Part shown: positions 6,737 to 15,261 of the stretch, piece by piece
Layout of the letters: each line of letters opens with the position of its first letter
How positions within the stretch are numbered: the first letter of the stretch is position 1
Source of the DNA: an uncultured Bacilli bacterium
GTDB taxonomy: Bacteria; Bacillota_I; Bacilli_A; RF39; UBA660
Direction of reading: 5' to 3'
Length of the DNA stretch: 41,102 nt
NCBI GenBank assembly: GCA_947623685.1
Contig: CANQHF010000008.1
Span: 1 to 41,102, forward strand
Notes under the pieces: generated by a model
Database searches by the model: none
What the model saw: the letters and a program-made list of their open reading frames with translations, nothing else
Told to the model about the DNA's origin: nothing
Translations under genes and position numbers: made by a program

Positions 6737-7420
6737 CTATGAATCAGTTGTACTATACGTTAAGGTTATATCTCCAAACTCAACATCAAAATCGCCATCT
6801 GCAACAAAAGCGTTAATATAATAATAAATAGCAATAGCAATCTGTTTAGAAGCACCTTTTTCTAAAGGATGATCTGTTATATTATCTTTCGTATCTGCTA
6901 AAGCATTTATACCCCAACTATTACCAGGGACACCATCATAATATATTTGAAGTACTATGCTTGCACAAGCTTTATCAACTAGTTCTTGTGATGTTCCTTC
7001 TTTAGCAGTACATTTTTTACTTCCAAACTCAATTTTCTTTAAATATGCTGTATATTTTCCTTGATTTGTTACAAAAAATCGCCATTCAACAGTTTGATCT
7101 GGACCAGTAAACGTTGCTTTTAAATTACTAATAGTCGGGTGTGCCGGATTACTATTATCTATTGTTGCAGTAGTTCCTGTCGCATTACCTCTTATATAAC
7201 CAGTACCAATAGGATCAGTTGCAACAGTCCAGCTTGAACTTGAAAACAAAACTTTAAAGTCTGATGGATCTGGTGTTACTGTTGCAGTTGAATTAATATC
7301 TAGATTTTTAGAAAATGCTGAAAATCCTATTGATAATCCTATTACTCCAACCATAAGCACCATGATTATTATTATTTTAGAGTTTTTATTATATCTTTTT
7401 CTTGTTCTTTTACTTTTCAT
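6737..7420 (-). CDS. Secreted or surface protein, paralog A
   Basis: A 227-aa protein with a basic N-terminus (MKSKRTRKRYNKN), a hydrophobic segment at about residues 16-36 (IIIIMVLMVGVIGLSIGF) and then SAFSKNLDINSTATVTPDPSDF. This start resembles the signal region of TasA/camelysin-type exported proteins processed by SipW-like peptidases; that link is an inference and no sipW gene is in the window. The mature part has two cysteines about 16 residues apart (CTAKEGTSQELVDKAC), likely a disulfide, and a beta-rich ending. Paralog B next to it is clearly related along its length. Start ATG follows AAAGGTGG. Expression depends on the G-tract promoter cassette. Confidence 0.85.
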   Translation of the reverse strand: MKSKRTRKRYNKNSKIIIIMVLMVGVIGLSIGFSAFSKNLDINSTATVTPDPSDFKVLFSSSSWTVATDPIGTGYIRGNATGTTATIDNSNPAHPTISNLKATFTGPDQTVEWRFFVTNQGKYTAYLKKIEFGSKKCTAKEGTSQELVDKACASIVLQIYYDGVPGNSWGINALADTKDNITDHPLEKGASKQIAIAIYYYINAFVADGDFDVEFGDITLTYSTTDS

Positions 7421-7587: not shown

Positions 7588-8280
7588 TTACGAATCACTT
7601 GAACTATATGTTAAGGTTATATCTCCAAACGTAACGTCGAAGTCTCCATCTGCTACTGCTGCATCAGTATTTGTATAATCATTCCCTATCCAAATTGTAA
7701 CAGGCTCAAAAACTCCTTTTGCTAATGGATGATTAGTTATAGTGCGCGTTTCAGCAACATCCCTTAAATAATTAGGATTACTAGAATCGCTTAAATTGAA
7801 AGATAATAAGAATTCAATCTTTCTACAAGCATCATCAACTAAATCTTGCGATGTTCCTGGTTTTGCAGTACATGTTTTATCTCCAAATTCTATTTTCTTT
7901 AAATATGCTGTATATTTTCCTTGGTTTGTTACATAAAATTCCCATGCAGCTGATTGTCCTGAATTAGTAAACGTAGCTTTCAATCCAGTTATTTTTGGAT
8001 GTGATGGATCATTATTATCTATTGTTGCAGTAGATCCAGTTGCAGTGCCATCGCCCCAACTAAATTCCAAATTTCCATCTACCACACTATCTTTTGAACT
8101 TGAAAACAAAATTTTAAAGTCTGATGGATCTGGCGTTACTGTTGCAGTTGAATTAATATCTAAATTTTTAGAAAATGCTGAAAATCCTATTGATAATCCT
8201 ATTACTCCAATCATAAGTACCATGATTATTAATATTTTAGTGTTTTTATTATATCTTTTTCTTGTTCTTTTACTATTCAT
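7588..8280 (-). CDS. Secreted or surface protein, paralog B
   Basis: A 230-aa paralog of the neighbouring gene. The first 55 residues are almost identical (basic start, membrane segment, SAFSKNLDINSTATVTP). The middle shares CTAKPGTSQDLVDDAC and the KYTAYLKKIEFG strip. The end shares VADGDFDVTFGDITLTYS. Regions between these are diverged, as expected for exposed loops. It has its own copy of the G9 promoter cassette and inverted repeat, so the duplicated unit was gene plus promoter. The function is unknown; a fibre- or matrix-forming surface protein is a guess from the signal region only. Confidence 0.85.
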   Translation of the reverse strand: MNSKRTRKRYNKNTKILIIMVLMIGVIGLSIGFSAFSKNLDINSTATVTPDPSDFKILFSSSKDSVVDGNLEFSWGDGTATGSTATIDNNDPSHPKITGLKATFTNSGQSAAWEFYVTNQGKYTAYLKKIEFGDKTCTAKPGTSQDLVDDACRKIEFLLSFNLSDSSNPNYLRDVAETRTITNHPLAKGVFEPVTIWIGNDYTNTDAAVADGDFDVTFGDITLTYSSSDS

Positions 8281-8747: not shown

Positions 8748-9791
8748 TTATTTATATCTATTGCTAGTTTTTGTAATTGTGTTATCAGAAAAACTTCTAC
8801 TTTCATTAGAACGGAAAGATAAAAAATTGTGGTTTCTAATTCCGTTTAATGCATCATTAACCGCTGTTCTTACGTTTTCCGGAATATTTCCTAAATATTT
8901 TTTATAATAATCCTGTTCATAAACAACGAATTGATGGGGAGCAGTTGCTTGAGCTATTGGATCAGTACCATGAGAATTAATCCAAGCTTTTGATTCACAT
9001 CTATTTAATATCGTTGTTATAACTCCTAAAGCATCATCAAGAGATTTATCACACTCTGCTGCTACAATTGCCATTAAAAATTCTTTATCATCTTCATTTA
9101 TGTTATATTTTTTATTATCATCAGTAACAACAAAACCTAGCTCTTCTTTATTTTTATATTTAGCTGCATCTGGATTTATTTCTTCTTTTTCTTGCTCTTC
9201 ATTATCATTTTCAGTTTTATCATCAGTGTTTTTATTTAATAATATTGGGTTTATTTCTTGTGTATTTAAATCATCTATTGCCGTTAGCATTGGTGATTTT
9301 TCTTTTATATTTAAGTCATTATCTATAACATTATCAGTTATATTAGTTATACTATCCATATCAGTATATGATGTACTTGGTTTAGGGTTATTAGATTTCG
9401 AAGACTCTTTACTTACATTTATTCCACCAGTTAAAATAGTTGTAATAGATAGACCAATTGGGATTATAACTTTAGCTATTTTTCCTTTAACTAATTTATA
9501 TTTCTTTTCATTTATATATTTGAAAATAAACGAAAATTTTTCATCATTTTTAAAATCTTTTTTATTTTTTAAAATAACCTTTATATCATAATTTGATATA
9601 TAAAAAACAAGATCTCCTTTTCTAAAATGAATGTTGGTTATTAATTTGTTATTGTCTCTTAAATTTTTTAACATTTCAAATACATAATCAGGTGAAGCTT
9701 TTTGTCTTATTTTTTTATCATTATCGTCGATATAAAAAGAATTATATGCTTGTATTATGTTCCCAAGTTTTCTTATTTTAAGTTCCATCAT
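8748..9791 (-). CDS. SleB/CwlJ-type cell wall hydrolase with N-terminal membrane anchor
   Basis: The C-terminal about 115 residues fit the SleB/CwlJ hydrolase domain (Hydrolase_2), which in spore formers cleaves cortex peptidoglycan: FLMAIVAAECDKSLDDALGV with the probable catalytic glutamate at residue 246, then TTILNRCES. The N-terminal 100 residues are basic and of unknown fold, followed by a membrane segment near 105-125 (VIIPIGLSITTILTGG) and an acidic low-complexity stalk to about residue 225. This is unlike SleB itself, which has a signal peptide and a peptidoglycan-binding domain, so a vegetative wall enzyme is also possible. It has its own promoter and terminator. Confidence 0.8.
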   Translation of the reverse strand: MMELKIRKLGNIIQAYNSFYIDDNDKKIRQKASPDYVFEMLKNLRDNNKLITNIHFRKGDLVFYISNYDIKVILKNKKDFKNDEKFSFIFKYINEKKYKLVKGKIAKVIIPIGLSITTILTGGINVSKESSKSNNPKPSTSYTDMDSITNITDNVIDNDLNIKEKSPMLTAIDDLNTQEINPILLNKNTDDKTENDNEEQEKEEINPDAAKYKNKEELGFVVTDDNKKYNINEDDKEFLMAIVAAECDKSLDDALGVITTILNRCESKAWINSHGTDPIAQATAPHQFVVYEQDYYKKYLGNIPENVRTAVNDALNGIRNHNFLSFRSNESRSFSDNTITKTSNRYK

Positions 9792-11648: not shown

Positions 11649-11880
11649 CAAAAAAAATCATCCTAATTAAAGGACGATTATTAACCGCGGTACCACCTTT
11701 GTTCTAGATTTTTACCTAGCACTTAAACTCTTAACGCAAGTTAACGTTTTAATCTATTAGATTAAACAGCTTTTGAAAACCATCTATATGGTTATTATCT
11801 ATGTATGCTTTCAGCTTACCATACTCTCTTTTAATAGTTTTACCCATACTCTTTTTCATCAATGCCTTTAAAACAAATAA
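11649..11880 (-). promoter_or_regulatory. Methionine T-box leader upstream of metG
   Basis: A tRNA-sensing leader RNA. On the minus strand are seen the stem I start (GATGAAAAAGAGTA), an apical AGAGAG and GCTG region, the specifier-loop strand ATAGATGG, the T-box GGTGGTACCGCGG (11697-11685), and a terminator ATCGTCCT / AGGATGAT followed by eight T. By position in the loop the specifier reads AUG (11783-11781), matching methionine. The T-box UGGU is complementary to an ACCA tRNA end, as expected for tRNA-Met with A73. Confidence 0.9.
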
Positions 11881-11930: not shown

Positions 11931-14900
11931 TTATTTTTTTCTAGATAACACTAATGCATTTGCCTTTACTATTTCATGTTGATCATTATATGTGAATTTC
12001 CCATTTTTAATTAGTTCATCTACGTTTTTACTATCCAATAAACCATATAAAAACATATAATACTGCATATTTATATCATTTAATAGTGCTTTATAATACT
12101 TTACATCATATATCATATCAATAGAATTTAGTAATTCTATTTGCTTTTCATTTAACTTTTCGTTTCTATATGCTATTCTTTGTCTATTTATCCAAAAACC
12201 TAATTTAATAATATTACCAGTTTCTTCTATAACAACATAATCTTGTGATATTAATAAATTACCATGCTTTTCGTAATATTTTTTAGCAAGATTATAATTT
12301 ATTATCCAATCATTTTTTATTACTTCATTGTTACCATTAACTTTCCAAGCCATTTTTATTTCATTTAGTAATTCTATTTGATTTTTATTTAACTTTCCGT
12401 TTTTATATGCTATTCTTTGTCTATTTATCCAAAAACCTAATTTAATAATATTACCAGTTTCTTCTATAACAACATAATCCCGCGGTATTAATAAATTACC
12501 ATACTCTTCGTAATATTTTTTGGCAAGGTTATAATTTATTATCCAATCATTTTTTATTACTTCATTGTTACCATTAACTTTCCAAGCCATTTTTATTTCA
12601 TTTAGTAATTCTATTTGCTTTTCATTTAACTTTCCGTTTTTATATGCTTGTCTTTGACTATTCATCCATAAACCTAATTTGATAATATTACCAGTTTCTT
12701 CTATAACAACATAATCTTGCGGTATTAATAAATTACTATGTTCTTCGTAATATTCTTTGGCAAGGTTATAATTTCTTACCCATTTGTCTTTTATTAACTC
12801 TTGGCTATAATTGCTATTAACTTTCCATACCATTTTTATTTTATTTAATAATTCTGTTTGTTTTCTATTTAACTTTCCGTTTTTATATACTTGTCTTTGA
12901 ATATTTATCCACCTACCTAATTTAATAATATTACCAGTTTCTTCTATAACAACATAGTCTCGCGGTATTAATAAATTACTATGCTCTTCGTAATATTCTT
13001 TAGCAAAGCTATAATTTTTTATCCATTTGTCCGATATTAATTCTTGATTATAATTACAATTAACTTTCCAAGCCATTTTTATTTCATTTAGTAATTCTAT
13101 TTGTCTTTTATTTAACTTTTCATTTTTATATGTTTGTCTTTGTTTATTTATCCACAAACCTAATTTAATAATATTACCAGTTTCTTCTATAACAACATAG
13201 TCTCGCGGTATTAATAAATTATTATGTTCTTCGTAATATTCTTTAGCAAGGTTATAATTTCTTATCCATTTGTCCGATATTAATTTATGATTATAATTAC
13301 AATTAACTTTCCAGACCATTTTTATTTCATTTAGTAATTCTATTTGTCTTTTATTTAACTTTTCATTTTTATATGCTACTCTTTGATTATTTATCCACAT
13401 ACCTAGTTTAATAATATTACCAGTTTCTTCTATAACAACATAGTTTTGTGGTATTAATAAACTACCATGTTCTTCATAATACTTTTTGGCAAGGTTATAA
13501 TTTCTTATCCAATCGTTTTTTATTACTTCATTGTTACCATTAACTTTCCAGATCATTTTTATTTCATTTAGTAATTCTATTTGTTTTCTATTTAGATTTT
13601 CATTTTTATATGCTTGTCTTTGACTATTTATCCACCTATCTAATTTAATAATATTACCAGTTTCTTCTATAACAACATAATTTCGCGGTATTAATAAATT
13701 ATTATGTTCTTCATAGTATTTTTTAGCAAAGTTATAATTTATTATCCATTTGTCCGATATTAATTCTTGATTATAATTACCATTAACTTTCCATACCATT
13801 TTTATTTCATTTAATAATTCTATTTGTCTTTTATTTAACTTTTCATTTTTATATGCCGTTCTTTGATTATTTATCCAGTTACCTAATTTAATAATACTTC
13901 CGTTTTCATTTTTAGTAACATAATCTTGGGGTATTAATAAATTACTATGTTCTTCGTAATATTTTTTGGCAAGATTATAATTTCTTATCCAATCGTTTTT
14001 TATTACTTCATTGTTACCATTAACTTTCCAGACCATTTCTATTTCATTTAATAATTCTATTTGCTTTTTATTTAACTTTCCGTTTTTATATGCCGTTCTT
14101 TGACTATTTATCCACCTACCTAATTTAATAATATTACCAGTTTCTTCTATAACAACATAATCTCGCGGTATTAACAAATTACTATGTTCTTCGTAATATT
14201 TTTGGGCAAGGTTATAATTTCTTATCCAATCGTTTTTTATTACGTCATTGTTACCATTAACTTTCCAGACCATTTCTATTTCATTTAATAATTCTATTTG
14301 CTTTTTATTTAACTTTTTATTTTTATATGCTTCTCTTTGACTATTTATCCATAAACCTAATTTAATAATACTTCCGTTTTCATCTTTAACAACATAGTTT
14401 TGTGGTATTAATAAATTACTATGTTCTTCGTAATATTTTTGGGCAAGATTATAATTTCTTATCCATTTGTCCGCTATTAATTCTTGATTATAATTACAAT
14501 TAACTTTCCAAACCATTTTTATTTTATTTAATAATTCTATTTGTTTTCTATTTAACTTTCCGTTTTTATATACCGTTCTTTGTCTATTTATCCATAAACC
14601 TAATTTAATAATACTTTCGTTTTTATCTTTAACAACATAGTTTTGTGGTATTAATAAATTACCATGCTTTTCATAATATTTTTTAGCAAAGTTATAATTT
14701 CTTATCCATTTGTCCGATATTAATTCTTGATTATAATTACAATTAACTTTCCAGACCATTTTTATTTCATTTAGTAATTCTATTTGTTTTCTATTTAATT
14801 TTTCATTTTTATATGCTACTCTTTGATTATTTATCCACATACCTAGTTTAATAATATTACCAGTTTCTTCTATAACAACATAGTTTTGTGGTATTAATAA

Positions 14901-15209
14901 ACTACCATGTTCTTCATAATACTTTTTGGCAAGGTTATAATTTCTTATCCAATTGTTTTTTATTAACTCTTGGCCATAATTACAATTAACTTTCCAGACC
15001 ATTTTTATTTCATTTAGTAATTCTATTTGCCTTTTATTTAACTTTTCATTTTTATATGCTTGTCTTTGACTATTTATCCACCTACCTAATTTAATAATAT
15101 TACCAGTTTCTTCTATAACAACATAATCTTGTGATATTAATAAATTACCATGCTTTTCGTAATATTTTTTAGCATAGTTATATTTTTTTAACCATTCATT
15201 TTTAAACAT
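11931..15209 (-). CDS. Protein of 13 tandem helicase-associated (HA) repeats
   Basis: The 1092-aa product starts directly with repeats and is built of 13 units of 79 or 81 residues. Each unit runs W-x(3)-Y-x(2)-AKKYYEEHGNLLIP, a tyrosine-valine strip, LGxWIxxQRxxYKNxKL, then QIELLNEIKMVW. This is the pattern of the HA domain (PF03457) usually found after a DEAD-type helicase or nuclease core and thought to bind nucleic acid. No helicase, nuclease or other catalytic region is present. Two linkers alternate irregularly: NCNYNQELI...DK before the next W (81) and NGNNEVIKND (79). The units are nearly identical in DNA too. The last about 70 residues diverge and end basic. The function is unknown. 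Start ATG follows AAGGTG. Confidence 0.85.
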   Translation of the reverse strand: MFKNEWLKKYNYAKKYYEKHGNLLISQDYVVIEETGNIIKLGRWINSQRQAYKNEKLNKRQIELLNEIKMVWKVNCNYGQELIKNNWIRNYNLAKKYYEEHGSLLIPQNYVVIEETGNIIKLGMWINNQRVAYKNEKLNRKQIELLNEIKMVWKVNCNYNQELISDKWIRNYNFAKKYYEKHGNLLIPQNYVVKDKNESIIKLGLWINRQRTVYKNGKLNRKQIELLNKIKMVWKVNCNYNQELIADKWIRNYNLAQKYYEEHSNLLIPQNYVVKDENGSIIKLGLWINSQREAYKNKKLNKKQIELLNEIEMVWKVNGNNDVIKNDWIRNYNLAQKYYEEHSNLLIPRDYVVIEETGNIIKLGRWINSQRTAYKNGKLNKKQIELLNEIEMVWKVNGNNEVIKNDWIRNYNLAKKYYEEHSNLLIPQDYVTKNENGSIIKLGNWINNQRTAYKNEKLNKRQIELLNEIKMVWKVNGNYNQELISDKWIINYNFAKKYYEEHNNLLIPRNYVVIEETGNIIKLDRWINSQRQAYKNENLNRKQIELLNEIKMIWKVNGNNEVIKNDWIRNYNLAKKYYEEHGSLLIPQNYVVIEETGNIIKLGMWINNQRVAYKNEKLNKRQIELLNEIKMVWKVNCNYNHKLISDKWIRNYNLAKEYYEEHNNLLIPRDYVVIEETGNIIKLGLWINKQRQTYKNEKLNKRQIELLNEIKMAWKVNCNYNQELISDKWIKNYSFAKEYYEEHSNLLIPRDYVVIEETGNIIKLGRWINIQRQVYKNGKLNRKQTELLNKIKMVWKVNSNYSQELIKDKWVRNYNLAKEYYEEHSNLLIPQDYVVIEETGNIIKLGLWMNSQRQAYKNGKLNEKQIELLNEIKMAWKVNGNNEVIKNDWIINYNLAKKYYEEYGNLLIPRDYVVIEETGNIIKLGFWINRQRIAYKNGKLNKNQIELLNEIKMAWKVNGNNEVIKNDWIINYNLAKKYYEKHGNLLISQDYVVIEETGNIIKLGFWINRQRIAYRNEKLNEKQIELLNSIDMIYDVKYYKALLNDINMQYYMFLYGLLDSKNVDELIKNGKFTYNDQHEIVKANALVLSRKK
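12140..15200 (-). repeat. Tandem 237/243-bp direct repeats inside the HA-repeat gene
   Basis: The 13 coding units form a direct-repeat array. Blocks such as TTACCAGTTTCTTCTATAAC recur in most units on the plus strand. Units 2 and 8 share the uncommon LGMWINNQRVAYKN block, suggesting copying of whole units. The array is prone to copy-number change and to assembly collapse. Confidence 0.85.
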
Positions 15210-15233
15210 AATAACACCTTCTTAAACATTGTT

Positions 15234-15261
15234 ATTATATTTAAAATCTTTTAAAAGTCAA
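15234..15261 (-). promoter_or_regulatory. Promoter of the HA-repeat gene
   Basis: Minus strand TTGACT, 16-bp spacer, TATAAT, about 25 bases before the start codon. Confidence 0.65.

What the first reader, a model, noticed from the sequence alone, without database searches (positions are those of the whole stretch)
11931..15209. Giant protein made only of 13 HA (helicase-associated) domains
HA domains normally follow a helicase or similar core in one to several copies. Here 13 copies make up nearly the whole 1092-aa protein and no enzyme domain is present. With about 80 residues per unit this could be a DNA- or RNA-coating or scaffold protein, a binding partner for a separately encoded helicase, or part of a defence system. 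It sits in the block that interrupts a conserved gene order.
Basis: partly seen in the sequence, partly recalled or inferred. Interest (0 to 1): 0.7.

Follow-up and report, generated by a model that had tools for sequence, protein, structure and literature searches.

The report
Thirteen-unit protein array with hypervariable positions
A gut bacterium makes a large protein that is almost nothing but 13 near-identical copies of a small three-helix domain, which differ mainly at three positions on one positively charged helix, as expected if each copy reads a different bit of DNA; relatives attach the same kind of array to helicases and, unexpectedly, to RNA-polymerase sigma factors.

Summary
In detail: window 11931-15209(-) is one intact 1092-aa ORF of 13 PF03457 (HA) units plus a ~55-aa tail, with no enzyme domain and no lost helicase.

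Its units are 87% identical in DNA, but residues 38, 42 and 45 of the unit are nearly saturated with change. Amino-acid change there is 2.4 times the synonymous rate of the rest; the rest is under purifying selection. The same positions (with 22, 23, 41, 46) are hypervariable in 54 other arrays from the same bacterial family. In an AlphaFold model they lie on one face of helix 2 (net charge +3 per unit) and in a neighbouring loop.

Arrays occur alone (57 of 91 ORFs surveyed), behind a ResIII/DEAD helicase (27), and behind complete sigma-70 factors (4).

Best reading: a modular, sequence-selective nucleic-acid-binding array, most likely for DNA, working in the manner of zinc-finger or TALE arrays; here probably a stand-alone DNA-binding regulator. 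Binding itself is inferred, not shown. A protein-scaffold or coating role is a rival. Defence is not supported. The exact copy number of 13 comes from a metagenome-type assembly and is uncertain.

The parts
11931..15209 (-). HA-only array protein, 1092 aa, pI 9.4, net charge about +50
15000..15200 (-). HA unit 1, residues 38/42/45 = R,S,Q
14757..14957 (-). HA unit 2 (M,N,V)
14514..14714 (-). HA unit 3 (L,R,T)
14271..14471 (-). HA unit 4 (L,S,E)
14034..14234 (-). HA unit 5 (R,S,T)
13797..13997 (-). HA unit 6 (N,N,T)
13554..13754 (-). HA unit 7 (R,S,Q)
13317..13517 (-). HA unit 8 (M,N,V)
13074..13274 (-). HA unit 9 (L,K,Q)
12831..13031 (-). HA unit 10 (R,I,Q)
12588..12788 (-). HA unit 11 (L,S,Q)
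12351..12551 (-). HA unit 12 (F,R,I)
12114..12314 (-). HA unit 13 (F,R,I)
11934..12113 (-). C-terminal tail of about 55-60 aa, conserved with HA-only proteins of three other genomes of the genus; function unknown, low model confidence
15234..15261 (-). sigma-70-type promoter-like site TTGACT-16-TATAAT (11 of 12 matches) directly upstream of the gene
   Evidence: consensus match only
15215..15223 (-). RBS-like AAGAAGGTG, 5 nt before the ATG
   Evidence: sequence

Best explanation
The gene encodes a stand-alone modular nucleic-acid-reading array. Each ~80-aa HA unit is a three-helix domain with a small beta hairpin. The scaffold is kept nearly constant, by selection and by recent duplication or conversion of units, while residues on the exposed, positively charged face of helix 2 (38, 42, 45; in relatives also 41, 46) and the loop residues 22-23 diversify. 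The most likely mechanism is that helix 2 of each unit enters the major groove of double-stranded DNA and contacts a few bases through these residues, so that a string of units recognises a long, specific sequence, in the way zinc-finger or TALE arrays do. In other architectures of the same bacterial family the array would aim an effector: a ResIII/DEAD helicase or a sigma-70 factor. In the window it has only a short genus-specific tail, so the likeliest role is a DNA-binding regulator or site-specific DNA-bound anchor. SHOWN computationally: array, fold model, hypervariable positions, their selection pattern, fusion partners. INFERRED: DNA binding, sequence specificity, one unit reading a few bases, the regulatory role.
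For: (1) In the window array, per-position entropy peaks at 38 (2.16 bits), 45 (2.13) and 42 (2.08); the next is 1.46. Of the flanking codons, 39, 41, 43 and 44 are identical in all 13 units at DNA level and 40 in 12. (2) pN at 38/42/45 is 0.54 against pS 0.23 in the rest, ratio 2.4 (bootstrap over units 1.9-3.1); the rest has pN/pS 0.35; there are 10 distinct triplets in 13 units. (3) In 54 other arrays from the family, the most variable positions are 38, 42, 41, 22, 45, 49, 23 for HA-only arrays and 38, 42, 22, 45, 23, 41, 46, 49 for helicase-linked ones. In 54 of 55 arrays they exceed other exposed helix positions (Wilcoxon p about 1e-10). (4) Helicase-linked arrays of two genomes of one genus share scaffolds (81-96% identity) while the variable residues match 0-86%. 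(5) The model has pLDDT about 90 in the units; helix 2 spans unit positions 36-48. The fold matches the solved HA domain 2kta (Foldseek probability 1.0, TM 0.62). (6) The helix-2 segment (38-51) carries +3 per unit, the protein about +50. Variable residues are often N, S, T, Q, R, K, Y, H, although position 38 in particular also takes I, V, L, A; control surface positions are E/K-rich. (7) Arrays are fused to complete sigma-70 factors (regions 1.2, 2, 3 and 4 all over cut-off) in three genomes that also have a separate ~370-aa sigma factor scoring highest for sigma region 2, presumably RpoD, and to helicases in 27 ORFs. (8) Five of the 25 strongest covarying pairs are between variable positions (21 of 1653 possible pairs).
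Against: No HA-DNA or HA-RNA complex is known in the PDB copy searched, and no paper on PF03457 function was found in the open library. Hypervariable surfaces also occur in protein-binding repeats. In the window array positions 41 and 46 hardly vary, and several variable residues (M, L, F, I, V) are hydrophobic. The pairwise unit statistics treat related units as independent; the bootstrap only partly covers this. The C-terminal tail has no recognisable function. No target sequence was identified.
Confidence: 0.6

Rival explanations
1. A modular RNA-binding array, as PPR or PUF proteins are: the variable residues read bases of single-stranded or structured RNA, and the protein acts on specific transcripts.
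For: The same hypervariable pattern would be expected. Many HA units sit behind DEAD/ResIII-type helicases, some relatives of which act on RNA. The protein is basic.
Against: Fusion of the array to complete sigma-70 factors ties it to promoter DNA. ResIII is the helicase family of type III restriction enzymes, which act on DNA. The fold has no match to RNA-binding repeats.
Confidence: 0.15
2. A protein-binding scaffold: the variable face of helix 2 binds different protein partners or one rapidly evolving partner, as in ankyrin or leucine-rich arrays.
For: Hypervariable surfaces on tandem repeats are a hallmark of such proteins; several variable residues are hydrophobic.
Against: Helix 2 of the units is net +3, and the units are separated by linkers of about 12-14 residues rather than packed into a continuous solenoid (pTM 0.54 for three well-predicted units). 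The fusion partners (helicase, sigma factor) are nucleic-acid machines.
Confidence: 0.12
3. A non-specific DNA-coating or nucleoid-type protein; the variability is neutral drift in tolerant surface positions after recent unit duplication.
For: High positive charge, recent near-identical units (87% DNA identity).
Against: Non-synonymous change at the three codons exceeds the synonymous rate of the rest of the array by 2.4 times, which relaxed constraint alone is not expected to give. The same positions are singled out in 54 of 55 arrays against other exposed positions.
Confidence: 0.1
4. Defence component, or partner of a separately encoded HA helicase.
For: HA-helicases are accessory and patchily distributed.
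Against: No other HA protein in the own genome; PADLOC gives nothing with a passing stretch; housekeeping neighbours at the HA-only loci inspected.
Confidence: 0.03

Closest known systems
Helicase-HA proteins (ResIII/DEAD core plus PF03457 repeats), e.g. the adjacent WP_013483605 and WP_013483606 of Ruminococcus albus pRUMAL01
   Same: Same HA unit; in the window's bacterial family also the same variable positions.
   Different: The window protein has no helicase, has 13 instead of typically 4-7 units, and its units are far more alike.
Sigma-70-HA fusions found here (L079, L080, L081, L087)
   Same: Same bacterial family, same HA unit and largely the same variable positions.
   Different: They carry a complete sigma factor and some a ~120-aa helical tail; the window protein has neither, and its own tail is unrelated.
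TALE, zinc-finger and other DNA-binding tandem repeats (extended in PMC11417379: STAR, MOON, pTERF)
   Same: Near-identical repeats whose few variable residues sit at fixed positions.
   Different: Unrelated fold and unit length (~80 aa against 34 for TALE); HA and PF03457 are not mentioned in that survey's main text; no binding or code has been shown for HA.
2kta, HA domain of Bacteroides vulgatus A6KY75 (NMR)
   Same: Only solved structure found by sequence and by fold.
   Different: Single unit of a putative helicase, solved as an isolated domain.

Membership tests
PF03457 HA (helicase-associated) domain | Profile match over the curated cut-off | tested here: met
   13 of 13 units over 28.4 bits
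PF03457 HA (helicase-associated) domain | Three-helix fold of the solved member 2kta | tested here: met
   AlphaFold unit model, Foldseek probability 1.0, TM 0.62
Helicase-HA proteins | ResIII/DEAD helicase core in front of the array | tested here: not met
   No such domain; orthologues also lack it
Sigma-70-HA fusion | Sigma-70 regions 1.2-4 in front of the array | tested here: not met
   the N-terminal marker domain of that family is absent from G000
Modular sequence-reading repeat proteins (works-like class, no common ancestry) | Near-identical repeats with variation concentrated at a few fixed surface positions | tested here: met
Modular sequence-reading repeat proteins (works-like class, no common ancestry) | Variable positions lie on one candidate recognition face | tested here: met
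   Helix 2 spans unit positions 36-48 in the model; variable positions spaced i, i+3/4, i+7/8.
Modular sequence-reading repeat proteins (works-like class, no common ancestry) | Binds DNA or RNA, with specificity set by the variable residues | not testable with these tools
   Needs binding assays
Known anti-phage defence systems | Match to a defence family or a defence-gene neighbourhood | tested here: not met
TALE-like proteins | 34-aa two-helix repeats with repeat-variable diresidue | tested here: not met
   Unit is 79-81 aa, three helices plus hairpin

The most novel reading that the evidence does not exclude
HA repeats are a previously unrecognised natural system of modular, re-targetable DNA recognition: each unit reads a few bases through residues 22/23 and 38/41/42/45/46, unit order gives the target, and this family of gut bacteria uses the arrays bare, to aim helicases, and to aim dedicated sigma factors at chosen promoters.
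Probability: 0.35. Interest if true: 0.92.

Novelty: new variant of a known kind. Interest (0 to 1): 0.76.

Why it matters
HA domains are listed in Pfam only as 'helicase associated', with a guessed nucleic-acid role. The pattern found here gives a concrete, testable role: modular recognition with variable residues at named positions. Fusion to sigma-70 factors would be a way of directing transcription initiation by a modular array. If specificity follows the variable residues, HA units would be another family of re-targetable DNA-binding modules beside zinc fingers and TALEs, and the natural arrays in these genomes would provide many test cases.

Tried and rejected
Lost or frameshifted helicase: rejected, intact start with promoter and RBS, HA-only orthologues. 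Partner helicase in the genome: none with HA. Defence: no PADLOC or neighbourhood support. Phage origin: viral scan found no relative, one weak match in phage records; an alignment-based viral scan could not be run because no column stretch was conserved enough. Fold search with the three-unit model: no significant match, expected for beads on linkers; repeated with one unit. Window tail versus the HTH-like tail of other HA-only proteins: unrelated. HTH-like tails (A3) versus sigma region 4: aligned but only 4% probability; versus the C-terminal module of giant sigma factors: 43% probability; left as suggestive. NCBIfam: nothing for the window protein. Remnants of the HAD or NUDIX genes next to the window gene: none found. 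Paper searches for HA, PF03457, or sigma factor fused to repeats: nothing relevant.

Full report
OBSERVATION. The window is one whole 41,102-bp contig of a 1.24-Mb, 65-contig genome. The ORF 11931-15209(-) encodes 1092 aa. Pfam HA covers it with 13 stretches, 649 bits, and each unit is over the curated cut-off when searched alone; these are the only HA domains in the genome. Units are 79 or 81 aa long, depending on two alternative linkers, and 81-98% identical in DNA (mean 87%). A conserved tail follows unit 13. No enzyme domain is present, and the start is not a truncation: a TTGACT-16-TATAAT site and AAGAAGGTG lie between the ATPase gene and the ATG.

CONTEXT. In the genus the order is P-type ATPase - HAD hydrolase - NUDIX - metG, with HAD, NUDIX or both missing in some genomes (HAD and NUDIX named from their sequence, not scanned). 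The HA gene sits here in G000 (13 units), in G004 (3 units, after HAD) and in G012, where the assembly breaks inside the array, leaving its start on one contig and its last unit plus tail on another. A fourth homologue, in G008, has two units at another site. The tail is found only in these four genomes of 18. So the gene is accessory and its unit number varies. HA domains occur in 55 of 291 sampled genomes of the bacterial family; in a sample of 392 genomes from the phylum the only two with HA belong to that same family. HA helicases are common on Streptomyces and other plasmids.

THE CENTRAL RESULT. Positions are numbered from the first W of the unit. The 13 units are not simply repeats. Residues 38, 42 and 45 (LG-x-WIN-x-QR-x) take five amino acids each, while the codons around them hardly change: 39, 41, 43 and 44 are identical in all units and 40 in 12 of 13. 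Non-synonymous differences at the three codons run at 0.54 per site against a synonymous 0.23 per site in the rest of the unit, and against 0.08 non-synonymous in the rest. Collecting 411 units gave 54 further arrays of four or more units. The same positions, plus 22, 23, 41, 46 and 49, are the most variable within arrays, for HA-only and helicase-linked arrays alike. In 54 of 55 arrays the variable set exceeds other exposed helix positions. Arrays of two genomes of one genus (L103, L104) share scaffolds while the variable residues change. Variable positions covary with each other beyond a within-array shuffle: five of the top 25 pairs. In more diverged helicase arrays (Ruminococcus albus plasmid, Streptomyces, Micromonospora, Aneurinibacillus) the whole unit has diverged, so the pattern there is much weaker, though 41, 45, 46 or 38 are usually among the top positions.

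STRUCTURE. AlphaFold gives each unit as helix 1, a short hairpin, helix 2 and helix 3, with pLDDT around 90. The models start two residues before the W, so model residues 38-50 (helix 2) are unit positions 36-48, and model residues 56-64 (helix 3) are 54-62. Variable positions 38, 41/42 and 45/46 form one face of helix 2; 49 follows its end, and 22-23 lie in the loop before the hairpin. The helix-2 segment carries +3 per unit; the protein has pI 9.4. The only structural relative found in the PDB is 2kta, an HA domain solved alone.

PARTNERS. In 81 fetched stretches there were 57 HA-only ORFs (some cut by contig ends), 27 with a helicase, 4 with a complete sigma-70 factor and 3 others. The sigma fusions (L079 13 units, L080 3, L081 6, L087 7) have regions 1.2, 2, 3 and 4 over the Pfam cut-offs and coexist with a separate ~370-aa sigma factor with the highest region-2 score, presumably RpoD. 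HA-only genes stand next to a sigma-HA gene in L087, and two flank an ECF-like sigma gene in L101. The N-terminal domain of the fusions marks a family of large accessory sigma factors present in 73 of 386 genomes; those fetched have other C-terminal extensions without HA. HA-only loci otherwise lie among housekeeping genes.

INTERPRETATION. Fixed scaffold, variation confined to one charged helix face, faster-than-synonymous change there, and attachment to nucleic-acid machines including a promoter-recognising one: together these are best explained by sequence-selective nucleic-acid recognition, most likely of dsDNA, with units acting as modules. For the window protein, without an effector, a stand-alone regulator or DNA anchor is most likely. 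DNA binding, specificity and the regulatory role are inferences. The rivals are an RNA-reading array, a protein scaffold, a non-specific coat, and a defence component.

NOVELTY. The domain family is known, and an HA-only protein is already annotated under that name in a plasmid record (L152). The hypervariable-position pattern and the sigma-70 fusions were not found described in the open literature searched; a survey of DNA-binding tandem-repeat proteins (PMC11417379) does not mention HA or PF03457 in its main text. Subscription papers and preprints were not searchable.

LIMITS. The genomes are mostly metagenome assemblies, so unit numbers and order may be wrong; helicase-HA and short HA-only architectures do occur in complete records, but the sigma fusions were seen only in unnamed draft genomes. 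Units in one array are related, so the statistics are descriptive. Model coordinates could not be inspected. Defence families were checked only with PADLOC-DB 2023.

Noticed in passing
L079:6118-10365(+), L080:6317-8491(-), L081:7531-10785(-), L087:7588-10353(-): Complete sigma-70 factors fused to arrays of 3-13 HA units in three genomes of the same bacterial family; each genome also has a separate ~370-aa sigma factor, presumably RpoD.
   Followed up: yes
L186:4540-8592(-), L173, L182, L184, L185: A lineage-specific family of large accessory sigma factors (73 of 386 genomes) with long C-terminal extensions; L186 has seven tandem ~88-aa repeats that look like sigma region 4 or HTH modules, and L173 holds four such genes in tandem.
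   Followed up: partly
L078, L080, L081, L085, L087 C-terminal tails: HA-only and sigma-HA proteins of other genera share a ~120-aa helical tail that weakly resembles the HTH-like C-terminal module of the giant sigma factors (hhalign P 3e-4, probability 43%).
   Followed up: partly
L101:10390-10860(+): ECF-like sigma factor gene lying between two HA-only arrays of 8 and 9 units.
   Followed up: partly
L134, L135 (G396) and L147 (G444): Tandem clusters of five to six HA-only genes.
   Followed up: partly
window 11667-11871 (-): T-box leader (Rfam RF00230, 100 bits) in front of metG, with a ~50-codon ORF between it and metG; the terminator-like hairpin downstream of the HA gene belongs to it.
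   Followed up: yes
window 6737-7420, 7588-8280, 8748-9791 (-): Three consecutive genes between metG and a Mur ligase gene without any Pfam family; G004 has other genes there, one of which looks like a reverse transcriptase from its sequence.
   Followed up: no
L084:1329-5129(+): A helicase with a single HA unit behind a ~500-aa N-terminal region of unknown kind.
   Followed up: no
plasmid hits at 2-12 kb from the start of Streptomyces records: HA-helicase genes lie close to the record start in several Streptomyces plasmid records, recalling the terminal helicase TtrA (described in PMC8743542); identity with TtrA not tested.
   Followed up: no
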